Translations under genes and position numbers: made by a program | Shown: piece by piece, positions 5,541 to 64,000 of the stretch | Numbering within the stretch: position 1 is the first letter of the stretch | How the letters are laid out: each line of letters begins with the position of its first letter | The notes under the pieces: model-generated | What the model was told of the DNA's origin: nothing | The model's database searches: none | Seen by the model: the letters and a program-made list of their open reading frames with translations, nothing else | Source: Spirosoma lacussanchae | GTDB lineage: Bacteria > Bacteroidota > Bacteroidia > Cytophagales > Spirosomataceae | NCBI RefSeq assembly: GCF_005870035.1 | Contig: NZ_SWJG01000004.1 | Location: forward strand, 254,604 to 318,603 | Direction: 5' to 3' | DNA: 64,000 bases

Positions 5541-7718
5541 ATGAACAAACACGTTCTCATGCTGCTAGGACTGCTCATCGGGTACGCCCCGGCCTGTTCA
5601 GCGCAGCGGGTTACCATCCGGCAGACTGATCAATCGCCCCAGAGCCGGTATGCGGCAGCACAGCTGACAAAGGCCCTTAGCAGCCGGTCATACAGTGTAC
5701 AGACCGGTAAACAGCCAACCGACTTCAGCATCCGGCTGGCACCGGCTAATCCCGCACTGGGTGCCGAAGCTTATTCGCTCGACTGGCGTCAGAAACAGCT
5801 TACCATAACCGGTGGCGATGCAAGAGGGATGATTTACGGGGCCCTGTCGGTTGTCGAAGACCTGACAAACGGGATAGCCCTGCCGCAGCTTAAACCCCGC
5901 AGCGAACGGCCGCATTTGCCCCTCCGCGCCATTAAATTCGACCTTCCGTGGGATACGTACCGACATAGTTATGCGCTCGACCTGCACTACGAAACGTGCC
6001 GGGATACGCTCTACTGGCAAGCGTTTCTGGACATGATGGTGACCAACCGGTTCAACGCACTCAGCCTCTGGAATCTGCACCCCTACCCGTTCATGATCCG
6101 GCCAACTAACTTCCCGGCGGCTACCCCCTTCAGCGAGACGCAGATGGCCGACTGGCAGCGGCTCTTCAAAGCTATCTTCCGCATGGCCAGCGAACGGGCC
6201 ATCGAGACATACCTGATTCCGTTCAATATTTTCACCAGTCCCGAATTCTCTAAAGCCTACAACCCCAACCCGGCACTAAACAACCTCGACCATAAGCACT
6301 TCGTCGACGGCGACACCTCGGCCATTGTGAAGCGGTACACGCGCGAATGCGTTACGCAGGTCCTGCAGGAGTACCCCGAACTGACCGGGTTCGGGCTGAC
6401 CCTGGGCGAAGGGATGGGCGGCATGACACCCCAGCAGCGTGAAGACTGGATGAACCAGACCATCATTGAAGGCATGCGCCAGGCAGGCCGGAAAACGAAA
6501 CTGGTCCATCGGATTCCGTTCTCCAGTACTACCGGTTCGCTCGGTATAACGAGTGTCGAAACCGAAAAGCTGACCCGAAAATCCATCGAGCGCGAAGGGG
6601 CGCTGGACTTTATTGAAGGGCCAATCTGGGCCGACCTGAAATACAACTGGTCACACGCCCACTCCACGCCAACGCTGGTGAAAGTGCATGGGGGCAAACT
6701 ATACGACACCTATTTTAACCCCGTCCCATCGGCCTATAAAGTAACCTGGACTGCCCGCAACGAGGATTTTTTCTGCCTGCGCTGGGGCGTACCCGACTTT
6801 GTACGGGCGCACGTCAGGACCAACAGCCAGCCCTATGTCGGCGGGTATTTCCTGGGCTCGGAGACCTATATTCCGGCCCGCGATTACTTTACAGCCCCCG
6901 GCGGGCCGGTCAACTGGCGGTACGCGTTTGAGCGGCAATGGCTGTTTTACAAACTGTGGGGACGGCTGCTGTACAATCCGGCCACCGCCGATGCGGTGTT
7001 CCGGGCTGAGTTCGTGCGTCGGTACGGACCCAAGGCAGGTCCGTTGCTGGAGGCCTATGCGCTGGCGTCGACGACTCCGCTCCGGCTGGCTTCGGCTTTC
7101 GACTTCACCTGGGATTTCTCGCTGTACAGCGAAGGCATGATGGCACACGATGCCGACAAGAACGTCTCGTATATCTCCGTTAATCAGCAAATCACCCAAC
7201 CTACCCTCGACCCAACCTATGTGTCGGTCAGCGACTACGTGAAGACCACCAACGCGGGTGGATCGTTCGGTCCTGACAAAATGACCCCGACCCGACTGGC
7301 CCGGCTGCTGGAGCAGGACTGCCGGAAAGCGCTGCAACTGGTGAAGCCCATCCCGACTGCCGCCAGCCGATCGCTGCAGTACGAAGTGGCCGACGTGCTG
7401 GCATGGGCCAATCTGGGCTTACACCTGGCCGAGAAGCTGCGGGGCGCCGTTGCACTGCAAACCTACCGCACTACCGGCAACGAGACCAGCAAGCAGGCCG
7501 CGGTCCAACACCTGAAAGCCGCCCTTCGCTACTGGGATGAAGTAATTGCCATCACCCGTCCGCTCTACAACGACATGCCGCTGGTACACCTGAGCGAACA
7601 GAAAGGCAGCACCTGGGCCGAAAACGACAAACTCCGGTTTCACTGGGCGAAGCTACGACCCGCCGTGGCCGCCGACATTATCATTGCCGAGCAGTCCAAA
7701 CCTGTTCGGGCAGACTAA
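5541..7718 (+). CDS. Secreted glycoside-hydrolase-like protein (GH20/GH67-type N-terminal domain)
   Basis: This is a predicted periplasmic or secreted carbohydrate-active enzyme of 725 residues. It has a signal peptide (1-21, ending CSAQ), then an about 110-residue alpha/beta domain ending in GGDARGMIYGALSVVEDL, the pattern of the accessory domain found before GH20 and GH67 catalytic barrels. Next comes a large region with barrel-like strands (for example NRFNALSLWNLHPYPFMI and TGFGLTLGEGMGG), and a helical C-terminal part. The acidic residue pair of GH20 (Asp-Glu) is not clearly present, so the exact family is uncertain; uronic-acid-removing enzymes are an alternative. It is a single gene, with an EcsC-type gene converging on it 13 bases away. 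Confidence 0.65.
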   Translation: MNKHVLMLLGLLIGYAPACSAQRVTIRQTDQSPQSRYAAAQLTKALSSRSYSVQTGKQPTDFSIRLAPANPALGAEAYSLDWRQKQLTITGGDARGMIYGALSVVEDLTNGIALPQLKPRSERPHLPLRAIKFDLPWDTYRHSYALDLHYETCRDTLYWQAFLDMMVTNRFNALSLWNLHPYPFMIRPTNFPAATPFSETQMADWQRLFKAIFRMASERAIETYLIPFNIFTSPEFSKAYNPNPALNNLDHKHFVDGDTSAIVKRYTRECVTQVLQEYPELTGFGLTLGEGMGGMTPQQREDWMNQTIIEGMRQAGRKTKLVHRIPFSSTTGSLGITSVETEKLTRKSIEREGALDFIEGPIWADLKYNWSHAHSTPTLVKVHGGKLYDTYFNPVPSAYKVTWTARNEDFFCLRWGVPDFVRAHVRTNSQPYVGGYFLGSETYIPARDYFTAPGGPVNWRYAFERQWLFYKLWGRLLYNPATADAVFRAEFVRRYGPKAGPLLEAYALASTTPLRLASAFDFTWDFSLYSEGMMAHDADKNVSYISVNQQITQPTLDPTYVSVSDYVKTTNAGGSFGPDKMTPTRLARLLEQDCRKALQLVKPIPTAASRSLQYEVADVLAWANLGLHLAEKLRGAVALQTYRTTGNETSKQAAVQHLKAALRYWDEVIAITRPLYNDMPLVHLSEQKGSTWAENDKLRFHWAKLRPAVAADIIIAEQSKPVRAD

Positions 7719-7731
7719 GCCACAGGCGGGC

Positions 7732-8472
7732 TCAGCCGGCCAGCAACGTCTGGTCTTCGGTGAGCAGCCGCATCCGATAAGCGTTCATGGCCGTACGACC
7801 GAGCTGATTGACCAGTCGGTAATTGACCACTATACCGACCGCGGCCCCAATGCCGGGAACCAGCTGCGCCATTTTAGCCAGGTCGATGTAATCGCGGTAC
7901 TCCTGCTGGAAGGTCTGCCAGTCGAACTGGTTGATATCCTCCGGCAATTCACGGCTGTGTCGGGGCCAGTCGGCCAGGTGTTTGTAGACCGCCTGCCGCC
8001 GTTCCTGACTCGAGAAAGCCAGCTGAAACACATATAGCATATATACCCGTTCGCGGTAATCGCTGACCTGGTACCCGTAGAGGGCTGCGATTTCGAAAAG
8101 CATTTTCATCTTCAACGTCAGCAGCAACGGAAAGTCGGCCAGCCCGAGCAGCAGGCCACCCGCCCCCGTCACGCCCCCTTCGGCGGCACTGGCATTCCGG
8201 TAAAACCGGATTCGCCCGGCAACGGCCGCATCCCGCTCGGTCAACGTCAGCCCCTCGGCGGGTTTGCTGGTTAGAAATCCGGCACCGAAGAGAACGGCCC
8301 GGGTCATTTGTTTGATAGCGGTCGTGATGACATCGTGTACACGCTGCGGAATCATTCGGTTGATCCGGCGCTGCCACCGGGCCGATAGTTTTCCGAAGCC
8401 AGAGGGCGGGCGCTGCATCGCTAGCTGCCAGCGGGTTAGCTCAGTTCGGACGGCGGTTTCGTAGGGGGTCAT
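7732..8472 (-). CDS. EcsC-family protein
   Basis: This 246-residue protein matches the EcsC family, proteins of unclear role first named from an ABC transporter operon in Bacillus. Visible family features are the N-terminal helix region with NRMIPQRVHDVITTAIKQM, the glycine-rich stretch EGGVTGAGGLLLGLADFPLLL in the middle, and a helical tail ending in an LVPGIGAAVGIVVNYRLVNQLG segment. The glycine-rich hydrophobic parts suggest membrane association without a signal peptide. It has no obvious functional partner here: neighbours on both sides are on the other strand. Confidence 0.85.
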   Translation of the reverse strand: MTPYETAVRTELTRWQLAMQRPPSGFGKLSARWQRRINRMIPQRVHDVITTAIKQMTRAVLFGAGFLTSKPAEGLTLTERDAAVAGRIRFYRNASAAEGGVTGAGGLLLGLADFPLLLTLKMKMLFEIAALYGYQVSDYRERVYMLYVFQLAFSSQERRQAVYKHLADWPRHSRELPEDINQFDWQTFQQEYRDYIDLAKMAQLVPGIGAAVGIVVNYRLVNQLGRTAMNAYRMRLLTEDQTLLAG

Positions 8473-8581
8473 GGCAGGAAAATTCAGACTTTTTCGTATC
8501 TTAAACGAATCTTTGCCGGCTCCGGTGCGTTTTTTCTTTACATCTTTGTTATACCCAACCCTCTAACAGCCGCTTGTCCTT

Positions 8582-9310
8582 ATGAAGAGAATTGTCGTGT
8601 TGTTGTCTCTGACTGCCTTGCTGAATGTAGCCAGCACCGCCCCCAGCGCTACCCGTACAGTTGCTTCTGCCACGCCCACATCGTCTGTAAAAACGGCCGC
8701 TTCCAGCAAATCCTTCGGTCATCTTGCGGTATATGACCTGCTCAATCTGGGCCAGTCGGGCCTTCAGAAAGAGGTGTTCGAATACGCCCTGCGTGGCTGG
8801 CAGAAAATGGGAGCCTCCAGGCCAATCCTGTCTATAGTAGACCTGAGTCAGCCCTCTACCAAAAAACGGCTTTACGTCGTTGACCTGCTCAATAAAAAAC
8901 TGCTGTTCAACACCTACGTGGCCCACGGTCAGCATTCGGGCGATCTGATGGCCAGCCGTTTCTCGAACGTTAATGCCTCATTTCAGAGCAGTCTGGGTTT
9001 TTACCAGACGCTGAATACTTACATGGGTAAACATGGTCTGTCTCTTCAGCTCAAAGGGCTCGAGAAAGGCTTTAATGACCAGGTTTATAATCGCAACATC
9101 GTTCTGCACGGCGCCGATTATGCCTGCGAAGATTTTATTAAGAAAACCGGTCGGCTGGGTCGCAGCCAGGGTTGCCCGGCCGTACCCTACGCCGACTCGA
9201 AAAACATCATCCAGGCCGTCAAGGGCGGCACCTGTCTGTTCGTTTACGCCCCCAATCAGGACTACCTGAAACAGTCGGCTTACTTGTCGAATCCGTACAC
9301 GTCTTTGTAG
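8582..9310 (+). CDS. Murein L,D-transpeptidase catalytic-domain protein (YkuD_2 type)
   Basis: This exported 242-residue protein has a signal peptide (about 1-21) followed by a Thr/Ser/Ala linker and an L,D-transpeptidase-like domain. The predicted catalytic pair is His176 (in LHGADY) and Cys198 (in RSQGCPAV), the arrangement of the YkuD_2 group. Such enzymes act in the periplasm on peptidoglycan stem peptides, making 3-3 cross-links or attaching proteins. The gene's last 31 bases overlap the end of a second L,D-transpeptidase on the opposite strand. A CATCTTTG sequence at 8541-8548 is one base off the Bacteroidota -7 box and may be part of its promoter. Confidence 0.85.
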   Translation: MKRIVVLLSLTALLNVASTAPSATRTVASATPTSSVKTAASSKSFGHLAVYDLLNLGQSGLQKEVFEYALRGWQKMGASRPILSIVDLSQPSTKKRLYVVDLLNKKLLFNTYVAHGQHSGDLMASRFSNVNASFQSSLGFYQTLNTYMGKHGLSLQLKGLEKGFNDQVYNRNIVLHGADYACEDFIKKTGRLGRSQGCPAVPYADSKNIIQAVKGGTCLFVYAPNQDYLKQSAYLSNPYTSL

Positions 9311-10500
9311 AACCGGAGCCGCCCGGCCGCGTCTACATCAGCGGTGTTGTAGGCGATGAATACCGGAAACGGTTTGGCCACGGCCATCGTCTGCGGTTTC
9401 TGATCGATCAGGCATCGGTTCATGAATCCTTTGTCGAATGTTTCTTTGCCCAGCACGAAGTTGGCCAGCTCGACGGGTTTCTGTACCCGTACGCAGCCAT
9501 GACTCCGCCAGCGGTCGGCGGTAAGGGTAAACATATCCCGCCCGTTCGTATCGTGCAGATAGATAGCCAGCGGGTTGATCAGGTCGAACTTGATCAGTCC
9601 CAGGGCATTCTCGCAACCCGAAGCCTGCCGGATACGGTACGGAAAGTTTGTTTCTGACAGACTGGCCCAGTCAACATCTTCCGGGTTTACAACCTTATTC
9701 CGTTCGTCCAGCACCTCCAGATTCTGGTTGTACAGAAAGGCCACATCGCGCTGAATTTTGGGCAGCATTTCTTTGGTAGCAATACTTTTTGGCACGTTCC
9801 AGTACGGGTAAGCCACGATGTTCTGGATGGCTGTTGTCATGCAGGGAGTCCGTTTGTCGGCTTTACCGGCAATGACCTGCATCGGCAGCAGACGCCGGCC
9901 GCTCCGGTCAAATACATTGAGTTCGCCCGCCGGTATGTTGACCACCACAAACCGATCGCCCGCAAACCGATTGGTGTATCGGTAGAAATTGAGCGACTGC
10001 CGGATAATCCGCAGTGAATCGGCCATGGCGGGGCGGCTACCGGCCAGCTTCCGAAGCCGGTTATAATGGCCCACCAGCTGTTTGTAGGGGCCGAACGTAG
10101 CTGCACTGGCCAGCATACCATCCATTGATGATACATCGGCCTTCTGCGCCCACGACGAGTCAACGGCTTCTTTCAGCCCGTCGAACTCCATACGCGATGG
10201 CTTCTTGCCGTAGCGGATCTCCAGCAACAGCCGCGCCCGCTTATCGTCAAGCTGGGCCAGGGATGGCTGAGCGCCGACGGCAAAGCGACTGGTATCGATC
10301 CCGACTGAATCGGCATAGCGGCAAACCTGGTGCAGACTTTGGGTAGCCGCTGCCAGTTTTTCGTTCTCCTGCTCTACCTGAGCCTGCTTCTCCCGGTCGG
10401 CAGCCCGCTGAGTAAACAGGTAACGACCCACAAAAAACACGATAATAATCCCGGCAATGACGCCGATTAGTAGTCCAATTCTATTTTTATTCATGTTCAT
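9280..10500 (-). CDS. L,D-transpeptidase (YkuD/YcbB type), membrane anchored
   Basis: This 406-residue protein starts with a membrane anchor (about residues 8-28), then a charged coiled segment and a helical region, then the YkuD catalytic domain. The active-site motif is RWRSHGCVRV with Cys336 as nucleophile, preceded by the substrate-binding YLHDTNGRDMF segment. The layout resembles YcbB (LdtD), which makes 3-3 cross-links between peptidoglycan stem peptides, but the C-terminal tail after the active site is longer than in minimal YkuD proteins. It converges with the other L,D-transpeptidase (8582-9310) and their 3' ends overlap by 31 bases. Two starts are possible (ATG at 10500 and two codons later); the difference does not matter for function. 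Confidence 0.88.
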   Translation of the reverse strand: MNMNKNRIGLLIGVIAGIIIVFFVGRYLFTQRAADREKQAQVEQENEKLAAATQSLHQVCRYADSVGIDTSRFAVGAQPSLAQLDDKRARLLLEIRYGKKPSRMEFDGLKEAVDSSWAQKADVSSMDGMLASAATFGPYKQLVGHYNRLRKLAGSRPAMADSLRIIRQSLNFYRYTNRFAGDRFVVVNIPAGELNVFDRSGRRLLPMQVIAGKADKRTPCMTTAIQNIVAYPYWNVPKSIATKEMLPKIQRDVAFLYNQNLEVLDERNKVVNPEDVDWASLSETNFPYRIRQASGCENALGLIKFDLINPLAIYLHDTNGRDMFTLTADRWRSHGCVRVQKPVELANFVLGKETFDKGFMNRCLIDQKPQTMAVAKPFPVFIAYNTADVDAAGRLRFYKDVYGFDK

Positions 10501-10568
10501 ACGTTGACTCTGCTCGCCTATTTATAACGCGTGAGATTAGGTATTGGTTATACAGACGCGTTAAACGA

Positions 10569-59866: not shown

Positions 59867-60238
59867 CTATTTCGTTTGCAGTTCGAGGATTTTTATATAA
59901 TTTAATAAATATTGCTCACGTTCAATACTTCTTGCCCGCTCTTGCTCAAATTCGACAATTTTTTGGTCTCTTTCAAGCAACTGCTGTCGTTGCAATCGTA
60001 TTGTTTCTTCTAAATCCGTAGAAAATGTTTCTTTTCTTTCAGAGAAGAGTGTACTTATGGGTACACGTAGTACATGAGCAATTTGTTGAAGTCTGACGGT
60101 CGATAACTTTATTTTTCCATTCTCGATTTTTGAATACGTTGCCGGACTTACACCAATTTGTTCTGCAATGTATTCTTGTTTTAAATGTTTAGATTCCCGT
60201 AACACACGTAAATTAATTGCAAGTGATTTTATATCCAT
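59867..60238 (-). CDS. XRE-family HTH regulator with C-terminal coiled coil
   Basis: This 123-residue protein has a helix-turn-helix of the Cro/C1 (XRE) type over about residues 8-66, with IAEQIGVSPATYSKIENGKI as the recognition helix pair, and then a coiled coil of about 45 residues (TDLEETIRLQRQQLLERDQKIVEFEQERA) for dimerisation. It lies divergent to the peptide gene at 60442. A perfect 77-base palindrome sits between them, 27 bases from its start codon. The DNA is AT-rich, unlike the GC-rich genes to the left. It probably controls the peptide locus or itself (inference). Confidence 0.88.
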   Translation of the reverse strand: MDIKSLAINLRVLRESKHLKQEYIAEQIGVSPATYSKIENGKIKLSTVRLQQIAHVLRVPISTLFSERKETFSTDLEETIRLQRQQLLERDQKIVEFEQERARSIEREQYLLNYIKILELQTK

Positions 60239-60264: not shown

Positions 60265-60341
60265 AGCAAGTAGCATTCGAGACGGTAAAGTAGAATGAAA
60301 GTGACTTTCATTCTACTTTACCGTCTCGAATGCTACTTGCT
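60265..60341. repeat. Perfect 77-base palindrome (38-base arms, 1-base centre)
   Basis: Bases 60265-60302 are the exact reverse complement of 60304-60341, with a single G at 60303 between them. The arms begin AGCAAGTAGC and end GAATGAAAGT. Long perfect palindromes with a 1-base spacer are rare and unstable in bacteria, so this is either a strong cruciform-forming or regulatory site of the divergent region, the end of a mobile element, or an assembly fold-back artefact. Confidence 0.9.
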
Positions 60342-60441: not shown

Positions 60442-60606
60442 ATGAATCGTTTATCCCTGGCCGATTTGAAGGCAAAAGTCAATGTAGTAGCGAATGTTGA
60501 AGCCATTAAGGGCGGGACTGCAGAGGCTTGTCATTTAGGATCTTGCGGAGATACGACTATGCCAGCAGATGGCACCCGTGTCGCAAAACCAGGAAAAAGT
60601 ATTTAA
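60442..60606 (+). CDS. Candidate RiPP precursor peptide with double-glycine leader (54 residues)
   Basis: This short gene encodes a 54-residue peptide in two parts. The leader MNRLSLADLKAKVNVVANVE continues to AIKGG, so Gly24-Gly25 is a typical double-glycine cleavage site of Bacteroidota peptide precursors. The core of 29 residues begins TAEACHLGSCGDTT and ends VAKPGKSI; it has Cys30, Cys35 and two Asp residues (37 and 43) after the GG. The start is the ATG at 60442 and the stop is at 60604-60606. A hairpin follows before the next gene. Peptides of this form are usual substrates for modifying enzymes encoded next to them. That it is translated is inferred from form and position. An alternative frame across it (60330-60500) was rejected. 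Confidence 0.7.
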   Translation: MNRLSLADLKAKVNVVANVEAIKGGTAEACHLGSCGDTTMPADGTRVAKPGKSI

Positions 60607-60612
60607 TTTATG

Positions 60613-60645
60613 GAGCCCTGATTTGATCATATTAGGTCAGGGCTC
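60613..60645 (+). terminator. Attenuator-like hairpin between the precursor and the modification genes
   Basis: GAGCCCTGA (60613-60621) and TCAGGGCTC (60637-60645) form a 9-base-pair stem with a 15-base loop, followed by TTACTTTCTT. It begins 7 bases past the precursor stop and 24 bases before the next start. This arrangement usually makes the precursor messenger far more abundant than the downstream enzymes. Confidence 0.65.
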
Positions 60646-60668
60646 TTACTTTCTTGTTGATTTTAATT

Positions 60669-61820
60669 ATGAGAGGATATTCTGTTTCAACAATCCTAAT
60701 ATTACTATCATTTGCAGCATGCTCCCAACCCATACAAAATACAACTACTCAAACATTGTTTATTAATCCATCTGTTATTAATCAAGATGACTCGGAAGTA
60801 AAAGAAGTCATATCGGTTTGGAGGAAGTACTTATTGACTAAAGACTCATTATATCAAACTAATCCTTATTGGTCTAATCTGGAATACAAGAAAAGAAACA
60901 TACCAGATTATTTTCTTAAACGGATTAATCACTCTGGAATTTTTAATCAAAAAAATCTATATAAACCCACTGTATTATCTGTTGTAAGAGACGATAGTTC
61001 TTATATCATTAAAACCTTGTTTGCAACCGCAGAAAAAGACAACGGATTTTCTCGCGTTTCTGGAATAATTAATGTTGAAGCAATAAAAGAAAATGGAAAT
61101 TGGAAGCTAAAATCTATGTTAGATCAAAACCTAAAAAAGTATCAACAATATCAGGCTGGTAAAATTCTATATTATTTTTCTAAAAATAGAAAATTAGACA
61201 CATTACTTTGTAACAAATTTAACGAAATAAACACAGACATAGCTAGAAAATTTGACGTTTCTCCTATGGATATTATTTATTATTTATGCACAGATAATAA
61301 TGAACTGCAACGTTTAATTGGATTTGACTATGAGATTTCAATGGCTTATCCTAACCAGGTAAGTGGCCTTGCCGACATTTTCAATAATACTATTTATGCG
61401 GGTAATAATAGTGAATGGTACCCGCACGAGTTAGTACACCTTTATGTAAAGGATAAGTTTGGATTTGCAGTAAATTATTGTTTTAATGAGGGCATAGCAA
61501 CATATCTCGGTGGTAGTGTTGGGAATTCTCTACAATATCATTTGCATAAGATAGCGGTATATGTTAGAAATCACTCTGTAGATTTTACTAAATTATCATC
61601 CTTAGAACGTATTGATGACGAGACGAATTTTCAGTACAGTATTGGTGGCTTAATTTGTAAGATAGCTGATGAACGCTTGGGATTTGAAGGTATTAACAAA
61701 CTTCTTCAAACTGGAGACTCAGATGAAGAAATGTTTCAGGCCATCGAAAATACATTGGGTGTAAAACGAGGAAATTTTAATGAGTTTATTCACACTGAAT
61801 TAAAAAAATATGTCAATTAA
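60669..61820 (+). CDS. Exported HExxH lipoprotein (gluzincin-like metallopeptidase candidate)
   Basis: This 383-residue protein has a lipoprotein signal peptide with lipobox FAAC (Cys18). A zinc-binding motif HELVH (His253 to His257) is followed by Glu274 in NEGIATYLGG, the arrangement of gluzincin-type peptidases (MA-like clan). The ATG at 60669 was chosen because it begins the signal; a TTG at 60654 adds five residues. The region before the motif is of unclear fold. It is AT-rich and its stop overlaps the next gene by 11 bases. It may cleave the leader of the exported peptide outside the cytoplasm, but that is only suggested by position. Confidence 0.75.
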   Translation: MRGYSVSTILILLSFAACSQPIQNTTTQTLFINPSVINQDDSEVKEVISVWRKYLLTKDSLYQTNPYWSNLEYKKRNIPDYFLKRINHSGIFNQKNLYKPTVLSVVRDDSSYIIKTLFATAEKDNGFSRVSGIINVEAIKENGNWKLKSMLDQNLKKYQQYQAGKILYYFSKNRKLDTLLCNKFNEINTDIARKFDVSPMDIIYYLCTDNNELQRLIGFDYEISMAYPNQVSGLADIFNNTIYAGNNSEWYPHELVHLYVKDKFGFAVNYCFNEGIATYLGGSVGNSLQYHLHKIAVYVRNHSVDFTKLSSLERIDDETNFQYSIGGLICKIADERLGFEGINKLLQTGDSDEEMFQAIENTLGVKRGNFNEFIHTELKKYVN

Positions 61821-62955
61821 GTTATTTAGTTTAGAGGTTGACGATTTCTTGGTTCAATCTAATCAGATCGAGTTATCAGACACTGTTCGTTTGCTTTTAT
61901 ATCAGCAGTATCCTAGCTGGTTTGAATACTTAGCGTACGACAATGATGCCATATTTCTTGAGCCTACTCTCTTCTATTCTTTTTCTGACAAATCCTTATG
62001 CGAATTACCTATAGAACAAATATTATTTGGCTATCTACCTGAAGATAAGCGCCCTGGTCAATTTAAAGCTCTTATTGACCCATATGGCTTAATTAGTTTG
62101 CCCAGCTATGGATATATCCATACTAGTTATTCAAAAGAAATCATAGAGATTAACAAGTCAGATATTAATAACTTTAGCAATAAACACACTTTATTAGAAG
62201 AGTCTATTCAGCTTAACCAACACGTTCCTTTTATATTTTATACAGATAAAGTTATGAAATTAAAAGTTAATGAACCAATATCAAAAACCATATCTACACA
62301 TAAGTTACATTTACTAAAAGCATTTGAATTTTTGCAAAAATATTCACGTAAATTTTGGGAGATTATAAAATTAGTAACACGAGAAATTACTTTATTCAAT
62401 AGCCCGAATCAGCGTTCTATGGCGGCAATTTCCTATCATGGAACAGCATTTATTAATACAGAAGGGCAGGCACATGACGAGGTTTTCTTTATAGAAGATT
62501 TAGCACATCAATGTGGTCATATAATTTTTTATGCTTTAACGTTGAAGGCGAACGACTTTCTCAAAATTCGGAAAGAAACGCCAGTATGTGATATAACCGG
62601 TGTTCAACATGACAGCCGAACAGTCTATGGTGTGTTTCATGGTCTTTTTACTTACACTACTATCCTTTATTGCTTAACCGAATGTTTAAAATCAGGCGTT
62701 TTTAGCTATTCGCAACAGTTAGAGTCAATAGCTCGTATTGGCTTTTTTATGCAAAAATTTCAGGTGGATTTAATTTATATGAACCATCCTGAAATTTTCA
62801 CTCCGAAAGGCTGGCTAATATACTCAAGTGCTAAAGATAGCTTTGAACAGATTCAGCAGATGTTTAAAGCTGACTATGCGCTTTATCGCTATGATAATCA
62901 ACCTTACATTTTTAACTATGAATTATTTAGAGAAGCCAATGGTATTCTTACGTAA
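61810..62955 (+). CDS. Candidate alpha-ketoglutarate/HExxH-type peptide beta-hydroxylase (HQCGH variant)
   Basis: This 381-residue protein has no signal peptide. Its central part reads EVFFIEDLAHQCGHIIFYAL, where His233 and His237 hold the places of the HExxH motif, but Gln replaces Glu. About 40 residues later comes DSRTVYGVFHGLF with His277, a hallmark that I associate with the aKG-HExxH-type peptide beta-hydroxylase family (TIGR04267), which modifies RiPP precursors. The likeness is by eye. The gene starts inside the end of the lipoprotein gene (11-base overlap), and the next gene starts inside its end (17-base overlap), so the three are translationally coupled. The most likely substrate is the peptide at 60442-60606. 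Confidence 0.6.
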   Translation: MSIKLFSLEVDDFLVQSNQIELSDTVRLLLYQQYPSWFEYLAYDNDAIFLEPTLFYSFSDKSLCELPIEQILFGYLPEDKRPGQFKALIDPYGLISLPSYGYIHTSYSKEIIEINKSDINNFSNKHTLLEESIQLNQHVPFIFYTDKVMKLKVNEPISKTISTHKLHLLKAFEFLQKYSRKFWEIIKLVTREITLFNSPNQRSMAAISYHGTAFINTEGQAHDEVFFIEDLAHQCGHIIFYALTLKANDFLKIRKETPVCDITGVQHDSRTVYGVFHGLFTYTTILYCLTECLKSGVFSYSQQLESIARIGFFMQKFQVDLIYMNHPEIFTPKGWLIYSSAKDSFEQIQQMFKADYALYRYDNQPYIFNYELFREANGILT

Positions 62956-64000
62956 ATTTAGTCTGTTATTTTTGTTTGTAAGTACGCCAATCTGGCTGCT
63001 GGCTCAAATAAGTCGGCAGCCAGATTATAGTAATGCCCTAAAAGCTAAGGCGATTCTTGATCAGGCTATTGATTATAGCGGACTAGGATCGGATAGCCTG
63101 AATATGGTTATTTCTGCTAAGGGCGTAATGCATGAGTCCGGGCATTTTTCGGCCCCCGAAGAGCGGATCGACGTACCCGAGACCTATACGCTAAGTATCT
63201 TCAGTAGCATAGAGAATTATTATATTGATGGCCAGATAAATTTTCGGGGTCGGAATCTTACCCGGCAGGTATATGTGAAACAGGATAGTATCTTTTATAG
63301 GGACCATTTTGGCAGGGGCGTTAGCCGGGAGGCCCTGATCCGATCTATCCCTGTCTATAATGAAATTCTGGCATTGCATCCGGCTTTGATTTTGAACGAG
63401 GCTCGTCGGTCTTTGCTTTCATTGCGGTACCTAGGAAAAGTGGGAGCTGTCGCCTTGCTCTCATTCTCTACCAACCAAACTTCCTTTACGCTTCATATTT
63501 TGCCGAATGGACAAGTTAAACAAGTTTCGTATTTGGCAAGTCACAATTATTATGGCGATAATGTTCACAGATATGATTACCTGGACTATAAGCCTATAGC
63601 AGGCTACAATCTGCCAACTCGCTTTAACGAATATGAGTTTGGTGGCTTACGGAAGGACCTGACGTTTACTTACGACTTTGCACCTACCTTAACCTTGCCT
63701 GTCAATCAGGTTTGTCCAGGATGCTCTCTTGTGCCGAAGAGAAAAAATGCCAATATAACCGTGAAAAATTTGGGTGGTGATTTGTATAGCGTTGATTTAA
63801 ATGCTTACAACAATCGCTCGTTGTTTCTGGTCGCAAAAAATGGAGTTACGGTCTTCGAGGCTCCTGTAAGTTATAAGGCGGGTCGGGATGTTATTGAAGC
63901 CGTAAACCAAACAACAGGAGGTAAACCTATTACTCAACTGATGGTAACGCACCACCACCCCGACCATGCAGGTGGCCTGCGCGCCTTTGCCGAACAAGGG
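62939..64000 (+). CDS. Exported MBL-fold metallohydrolase, 3' end cut by window
   Basis: The frame stays open to the end of the window, 354 residues so far. It begins MVFLRKFSLLFLFV, a signal peptide ending LLAQ at 22-23. A mostly beta N-terminal domain of about 230 residues follows, and the metal-binding motif THHHPDHAGG (His338, His340, Asp342, His343) is reached just before the edge. The motif identifies a metallo-beta-lactamase fold; the rest of the domain is outside. It contains an isolated CPGC pair around residues 258-261. The start codon overlaps the hydroxylase-like gene by 17 bases. The base composition rises again to near the genome level, so it may be a resident gene next to the AT-rich locus. 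Confidence 0.85.
   Translation, partial: MVFLRKFSLLFLFVSTPIWLLAQISRQPDYSNALKAKAILDQAIDYSGLGSDSLNMVISAKGVMHESGHFSAPEERIDVPETYTLSIFSSIENYYIDGQINFRGRNLTRQVYVKQDSIFYRDHFGRGVSREALIRSIPVYNEILALHPALILNEARRSLLSLRYLGKVGAVALLSFSTNQTSFTLHILPNGQVKQVSYLASHNYYGDNVHRYDYLDYKPIAGYNLPTRFNEYEFGGLRKDLTFTYDFAPTLTLPVNQVCPGCSLVPKRKNANITVKNLGGDLYSVDLNAYNNRSLFLVAKNGVTVFEAPVSYKAGRDVIEAVNQTTGGKPITQLMVTHHHPDHAGGLRAFAEQG

What the first reader, a model, noticed from the sequence alone, without database searches (positions are those of the whole stretch)
60442..60606. Unannotated 54-residue precursor-like peptide
The reading frame is below the usual cut-off. Its leader has the Bacteroidota form (NRLSLADLKAKV, then AIKGG), the core holds two Cys and two Asp, and it is directly followed by an attenuator hairpin and a modification-type enzyme.
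Basis: seen in the sequence. Interest (0 to 1): 0.75.

Follow-up and report, generated by a model that had tools for sequence, protein, structure and literature searches.

The report
Widespread Cys-His modified-peptide gene cluster
A tiny bacterial gene makes the starting material of a probably modified, exported peptide; its relatives in several bacterial phyla carry the same two-letter Cys-His mark and sit beside an unusual oxygenase-like enzyme that probably modifies it.

Summary
The 54-codon ORF is a real gene: 28 synonymous against 6 non-synonymous changes versus its closest homologue (dN/dS about 0.02). All 19 of 222 family genomes with the downstream enzyme have a precursor. In 395 genomes across the phylum, 4 carry the precursor and 5 the enzyme; the 4 are among the 5. 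Leader conserved, core hypervariable except an invariant Cys-His after GG: a leader-only profile found 27 GG-type peptides, 27 of 27 with CH.

Cluster: XRE regulator, precursor, hairpin, gluzincin-like lipoprotein, modifying enzyme, MBL-fold protein, C39-peptidase ABC exporter, HlyD. The enzyme model (pLDDT 93) matches the aKG-HExxH oxygenases ChlB and SjiH (Z 23.8, 23.5; next 6.7), but its motif is HQCGH (HQ in 40 of 41 relatives, HE in one) and it scores 23 bits against TIGR04267 (cut-off 40): a sister clade, not a member. Gammaproteobacterial clusters reduce to precursor, enzyme, exporter, HlyD; Planctomycetes loci pair the enzyme with a Tat-like CH protein.

Best reading: a RiPP oxidised at Cys-His, cut at GG, exported. 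Chemistry and bioactivity are inferred.

The parts
59867..60238 (-). XRE-type helix-turn-helix regulator, divergent from the precursor
   Evidence: Pfam HTH_3 E 3e-15; same family found in 12 of the 20 fetched family regions
60265..60341 (.). Perfect 38+1+38 nt palindrome between regulator and precursor; function unknown
   Evidence: single place in the own genome; nearest homologue has a related 41-nt-arm perfect palindrome at the same place
60442..60606 (+). Precursor peptide: leader 1-25 ending in GG, core 26-54 (TAEACHLGSCGDTTMPADGTRVAKPGKSI) with invariant Cys30-His31
60612..60646 (+). Hairpin after the precursor stop codon (partial terminator or processing element; role inferred)
   Evidence: -23.2 kcal/mol, z -4.8; 15 of 17 loci have a strong hairpin (z -3.75 or lower) in the first 70 nt
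60669..61820 (+). Putative gluzincin metallopeptidase with lipoprotein-like N-terminus (HELVH; distal Glu273 in the numbering of alignment A3, which starts at residue 2)
   Evidence: alignment A3; weak Foldseek match to collagenase G and M1 peptidases on a pLDDT 64 model; no Pfam match for the window protein
61810..62955 (+). Modifying enzyme, aKG-HExxH fold, motif HQCGH (His233, Gln234, His237), with His277 and Arg309 invariant in A4
   Evidence: TIGR04267 E 5e-5, 23 of 40 bits; AF2 pLDDT 93.3 and PDB matches; conservation
62939..64000 (+). MBL-fold protein with hydrophobic N-terminus (start codon uncertain); runs past the window end. Beyond it, in L045: C39-peptidase ABC exporter 7053-9257 and HlyD 9257-10555
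   Evidence: Pfam Lactamase_B, Peptidase_C39, ABC_tran, HlyD_3; synteny

Best explanation
The ORF encodes the precursor of a RiPP. Shown here: it is a gene under purifying selection, with a conserved GG leader and a hypervariable core carrying an invariant Cys-His, and it is tightly linked to one enzyme and usually to a C39-peptidase exporter. Inferred: the cytoplasmic enzyme at 61810-62955, a divergent aKG/Fe oxygenase-fold protein, binds the leader and oxidises the Cys-His site (His beta-hydroxylation or a Cys- or His-centred oxidation). The exporter then cuts after GG and secretes the core through HlyD. The auxiliary hydrolases with signal-like N-termini (gluzincin, MBL-fold; in other clusters amidohydrolase, CPBP or thioredoxin-like) act outside the cytoplasm or in the membrane as immunity or final processing. 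The hairpin keeps precursor transcript in excess over the downstream genes. The secreted product is most likely an antagonistic or signalling peptide.
For: Selection: 28 synonymous against 6 non-synonymous changes versus the nearest homologue. Linkage: 19 of 19 enzyme-bearing family genomes out of 222 have a precursor (17, two more). Blind phylum test: enzyme in 5 and precursor in 4 of 395, the 4 within the 5; the fifth has GG..CH peptides by pattern. Core: the leader-only profile gave 28 hits in 24 of 37 loci; 27 are GG-type (counting one GQ) and all 27 carry CH, the other being a chance hit without GG. Enzyme: PDB matches to the ChlB HExxH domain (8s5f) and SjiH (22ob), Z 23.8 and 23.5, far above the rest; profile match to an HEISH relative E 3.6e-19 with HQCGH aligned to HEISH. 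The minimal cluster in L082 and L083 is precursor-enzyme-exporter-HlyD, so this enzyme is the only shared modifier. The exporter has Peptidase_C39 E 7e-30. Hydrophobic N-termini in the auxiliary proteins but mostly not in the enzyme.
Against: No product, modification or metal was measured. The enzyme is under the TIGR04267 cut-off and its Glu is Gln. Some loci show no exporter near the enzyme (L075, L078, L079, L087, L088). Two of 17 loci lack the hairpin. An invariant dipeptide could serve enzyme recognition or metal binding without being modified. Arg270, invariant in A4, is not kept in L100 and L101.
Confidence: 0.75

Rival explanations
1. The enzyme is a zincin-like protease that cleaves the precursor (maturation protease), not an oxygenase.
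For: Zincin-like fold; published PflC can hydrolyse peptides without leader (PMC12636437, passages read). Weak VIA matches to zincin peptidases.
Against: The general-base Glu of zincin proteases (textbook knowledge) is Gln in 40 of 41 sequences. A C39 peptidase domain is already fused to the exporter. The closest folds by far are aKG oxygenases.
Confidence: 0.1
2. The peptide is an unmodified class II-like secreted peptide (bacteriocin or pheromone) with GG leader and C39 exporter; the enzyme modifies something else.
For: GG leader plus C39 exporter plus HlyD is a usual layout for unmodified peptides too (recalled). More hydrophobic cores go with a CPBP membrane protease, a type recalled as bacteriocin immunity protein (p 0.02, 10 against 9, not corrected for relatedness).
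Against: Cys-His is fixed across several phyla while the rest of the core varies, and it tracks the enzyme even where GG and exporter are missing (L078, L079).
Confidence: 0.12
3. The enzyme is catalytically dead (HQ) and acts only as a leader-binding chaperone.
For: Glu to Gln is the classical inactivating change in zincin peptidases (recalled).
Against: Both motif His plus His277 and Arg309 are invariant in 30 of 30; a relative with HEGSH has the same kind of CH peptides nearby (L100/L110), so Q and E look interchangeable.
Confidence: 0.1

Closest known systems
aKG-HExxH peptide beta-hydroxylases (TIGR04267; ChlB HExxH domain 8s5f, SjiH 22ob, PflC/PosC, BpmH, PesO)
   Same: Fold (Z 23.8 to 8s5f and 23.5 to 22ob), two-His motif, alignment to an HEISH relative, role beside short precursors
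   Different: HQCGH instead of HExxH (HQ in 40 of 41); 23 bits against a cut-off of 40; no radical SAM or MNIO partner among the window cluster genes; GG leader, C39 exporter and CH core
GG-leader RiPP precursors of Bacteroidota (TIGR04149, radical-SAM targeted; pinensin leader NF038180)
   Same: Short leader ending in GG (recalled for these families)
   Different: Best E 0.089 in 2 of 17 members, none for the window peptide; no radical SAM or lanthipeptide enzyme among the window cluster genes
ChrH/DybH MNIO clusters of Bacteroidota (PMC12636315, passages read)
   Same: Oxidative peptide modification, also in Dyadobacter and Chitinophaga
   Different: Other enzyme fold (TIM-barrel MNIO), CPxCGxG motif, lipoprotein or signal-peptide export rather than GG/C39

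Membership tests
RiPP biosynthetic cluster (general) | Short precursor with conserved leader and variable core next to a modifying enzyme | tested here: met
RiPP biosynthetic cluster (general) | Post-translational modification of the core demonstrated | not testable with these tools
   needs mass spectrometry
GG-leader / C39-exporter system | GG at leader end and exporter with Peptidase_C39 domain in the cluster | tested here: met
   GG in 17 of 17; Peptidase_C39 E 7e-30 in own cluster
TIGR04267 aKG-HExxH peptide beta-hydroxylase | Score over the curated cut-off of 40 bits | tested here: not met
   23.3 bits for the window enzyme; 8 of 30 members of A4 match at E 0.01, best 1.8e-6
TIGR04267 aKG-HExxH peptide beta-hydroxylase | HExxH motif | tested here: not met
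   HQCGH in the window; HQ in 40 of 41, HE in L100 only
TIGR04267 aKG-HExxH peptide beta-hydroxylase | Same fold as the solved aKG-HExxH enzymes | tested here: met
   Foldseek E 5e-10 and 4e-9; VIA Z 23.5 and 23.8
TIGR04267 aKG-HExxH peptide beta-hydroxylase | Fe(II) and aKG dependence | not testable with these tools
   needs enzyme assay
TIGR04149 radical-SAM-targeted GG precursors | Match to the model and a radical SAM gene nearby | tested here: not met
   no match for the window peptide, 2 of 17 members at best E 0.089; no radical SAM among the window cluster genes
Gluzincin metallopeptidase (gene 60669-61820) | HExxH plus distal Glu and gluzincin fold | tested here: inconclusive
   HELVH and invariant Glu273, but some relatives read HDLWH; model pLDDT 64, best PDB match E 1e-3

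The most novel reading that the evidence does not exclude
A RiPP class spread over Bacteroidota, Pseudomonadota (Gammaproteobacteria, Zetaproteobacteria) and Planctomycetota, defined by an invariant Cys-His dipeptide. A natural HQxxH variant of the aKG-HExxH oxygenases, with the proteolytic Glu removed, performs a not yet described reaction on that dipeptide, such as a Cys-His crosslink or a metal-binding oxidised His. The product is a metal-site warhead, and the exported metallohydrolases of the cluster are the producer's immunity or its target.
Probability: 0.3. Interest if true: 0.85.

Novelty: new variant of a known kind. Interest (0 to 1): 0.62.

Why it matters
aKG-HExxH enzymes are recent RiPP oxygenases, and the mining reported in PMC12636437 used the family IPR026337. 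This clade scores below the TIGR04267 cut-off and so probably falls outside such surveys (inference). It offers dozens of precursor-enzyme pairs with one fixed two-residue site and otherwise free cores, which makes the reaction directly testable by co-expression. It also offers natural Gln and Glu versions to test what that residue does. A fixed site in a hypervariable, exported core suits both antibiotic discovery and peptide engineering.

Tried and rejected
Chance ORF: rejected by dN/dS, linkage and leader conservation. Membership of TIGR04149, pinensin or CCRG-2 precursors: rejected, weak matches only. Known RNA family for the upstream palindrome or hairpin: nothing over gathering score; the listed microRNA matches only reflect a long hairpin. 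Mobile repeat for the palindrome: only its own place in the genome. Viral or plasmid carriage: no relative of the enzyme in viral contigs or plasmids. Solved relatives by sequence: only weak matches to unrelated proteins or none. I first thought Gln invariant; L100 with HEGSH and CH peptides nearby corrected that. The pattern search used an HQC pattern and an FHGL pattern, so its 33 of 33 HQ is partly by selection; two searches were not pattern-based. The A2 profile includes the CH columns, so one search is biased for CH; the leader-only control is not. L078, L079, L109 and L110 peptides were first picked by a pattern that demands CH; of these L109 was also found by the leader profile. A structure model of the gluzincin was too weak to settle its fold (pLDDT 64). 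The single HE relative outside the clade (L108/L116) has no CH precursor nearby; it is one case only. A literature search for HQxxH gave 5 papers, none on RiPPs by listing; the other searches showed no description of this cluster in the listings seen. The main paper on ChlB (Nat. Chem. 2024) was not read; it is known only from a reference list.

Full report
Observation. The ORF at 60442-60606 is as described. It sits between a divergent XRE regulator and an operon in a 6.33 Mb, 23-contig genome. That genome shares its genus with one whose contig length equals that of a Spirosoma utsteinense record (G215:C34, 63,486 bases), so the host is most likely a Spirosoma (inference).

Is it a gene? Against the homologue in that S. 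utsteinense-like genome (L046) the precursor has 28 synonymous and 6 non-synonymous changes, dN 0.051, dS 2.1. The leader has 1 non-synonymous change in 25 codons and the core 5 in 29. DNA identity is 0.81 inside the ORF, 0.73 in the 200 bases before and 0.68 in the 50 after.

Linkage in the family. The enzyme was found in 19 of 222 genomes and the peptide at E 0.1 or better in 19 of 222. Seventeen are shared; in sixteen of these the peptide lies upstream of the enzyme on the same contig and strand, and in the seventeenth (G215) the enzyme gene is split over two contigs, its first part downstream of the peptide. The two peptide-only genomes (G135, G136) align only past residue 16 and lack the leader, so they are taken as chance. 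The two enzyme-only genomes (G146, G068) have precursors found later. So 19 of 19.

Linkage in the phylum. In 395 genomes drawn across the phylum the enzyme profile hit 5 and the precursor profile 4, all four among the five. In one of them (G391) the enzyme match is only a 46-position fragment. The fifth, G535, has two peptides with GGILGACH by pattern.

Wider spread. A scan of named genomes gave 33 enzyme loci in Spirosoma, Emticicia, Dyadobacter, Runella, Chryseotalea, Chitinophaga, Taibaiella, Flavobacterium, Aureispira, Saprospiraceae, Saccharophagus, Marinagarivorans, a Zetaproteobacteria MAG and two Planctomycetes MAGs, among others. MAG assignments may include contamination. Precursors were found in 28 of 33 by profile (L091 only at E 0.57), all with CH. 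Two more (L078, L079) carry a Tat-like N-terminus and end in GIWIPELVPVF.KLD plus a few residues, an ending much like that of L091. The other three (L066, L084, L095) start at a contig edge.

The Cys-His mark. In 17 family precursors the invariant columns are M1, L4, L6, L9, K10, A21, I22, G24, G25, C30 and H31. Because that profile contains CH, I built one from the leader only. It gave 28 hits among 5,862 small ORFs of 37 loci, in 24 loci. Twenty-seven are precursor-like (GG, in L086 GQ) and all carry CH; the last has no GG and is taken as chance.

The enzyme. It is 381 aa, TIGR04267 E 5e-5 but 23.3 bits against a cut-off of 40. The AlphaFold2 model has mean pLDDT 93.3. Foldseek's five significant matches are SjiH-Ni (22ob) and four chains of the ChlB HExxH domain (8s5f). 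VIA-align gives Z 23.8 (8s5f, rmsd 2.9 A, 281 aligned) and 23.5 (22ob, 4.3 A, 328 aligned), then 6.7. The motif is HQCGH. HQ is read in 33 of 33 loci, in the five sequences that are not among them, and in L099 and L101; L100 reads HEGSH. In A4 (30 sequences) Gly211, His233, Gln234, His237, Arg270, His277, Thr281, Arg309 and Gly334 are invariant, but Arg270 is not kept in L100 and L101. An HEISH relative aligns over 249 columns with E 3.6e-19.

The cluster. Around the precursor stand the XRE regulator (12 of the 20 fetched family regions) and, downstream, the exporter (18 of 20 regions) and HlyD (18 of 20). Auxiliary genes differ: gluzincin-like, CPBP, MBL-fold, amidohydrolase, thioredoxin-like, C6 and TPR proteins. 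In Saccharophagus and Marinagarivorans the set is only precursor, enzyme, exporter, HlyD. The auxiliary families mostly have hydrophobic N-termini; the enzyme mostly does not (a hydropathy measure, not a signal-peptide predictor). CPBP clusters have more hydrophobic cores (mean GRAVY 0.05 against -0.53, p 0.02, 10 against 9; relatedness not corrected; G100 and G154 go against the trend).

RNA. A hairpin near the precursor stop has z -3.75 or lower in 15 of 17 loci; G154 and G192 have none. Its sequence differs between species, which suggests the structure is what is kept. A second hairpin ending shortly before the start codon is predicted in nine Spirosomaceae upstream regions.

Mechanism. Shown: coding, linkage, fixed CH, enzyme fold by prediction, C39 exporter. 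Inferred: leader binding, Fe/aKG oxidation at CH, cleavage after Gly25, export, and extracellular action. Published aKG-HExxH enzymes hydroxylate His, Asp, Phe, Gln and Pro and can cut the backbone (PMC13060819 passages; PMC12636437 introduction and passages), so His31 is a plausible target. Losing the proteolytic Glu would fit a dedicated oxygenase, but the HE relative shows that Gln is not required.

Verdict. A genuine RiPP-type precursor in a cluster type that I did not find described in the searches listed under Tried and rejected. Known principle, new variant.

Noticed in passing
60265-60341; L046 same position: Perfect 38-nt-arm palindrome with one-base centre between regulator and precursor; the nearest homologue has a related 41-nt-arm perfect palindrome whose arms differ in step, so both stayed perfect.
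   Followed up: partly
Upstream of precursors in L049-L051, L053, L055, L059, L061, L062, L067: Predicted 5' UTR hairpin ending shortly before the start codon, with differing paired sequences; not scored for covariation.
   Followed up: partly
L078 9580-9906, L079 9507-9917, L091 9617-9883: Planctomycetes CH proteins with a Tat-like N-terminus and a C-terminal GIWIPELVPVF.KLD motif, similar in the Zetaproteobacteria precursor.
   Followed up: partly
L049:9781-10941, L092, L094, L095 gluzincin-like genes: Some relatives of the gluzincin-like gene read HDLWH instead of HELVH.
   Followed up: no
L059, L060, L063, G391: Several relatives have broken or fragmentary enzyme or exporter genes, so clusters seem to decay often.
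   Followed up: no
L056:1341-3105: In one Dyadobacter cluster a ThiF-family gene and an alpha/beta-hydrolase-like gene stand where others have gluzincin or CPBP (the hydrolase by eye).
   Followed up: no
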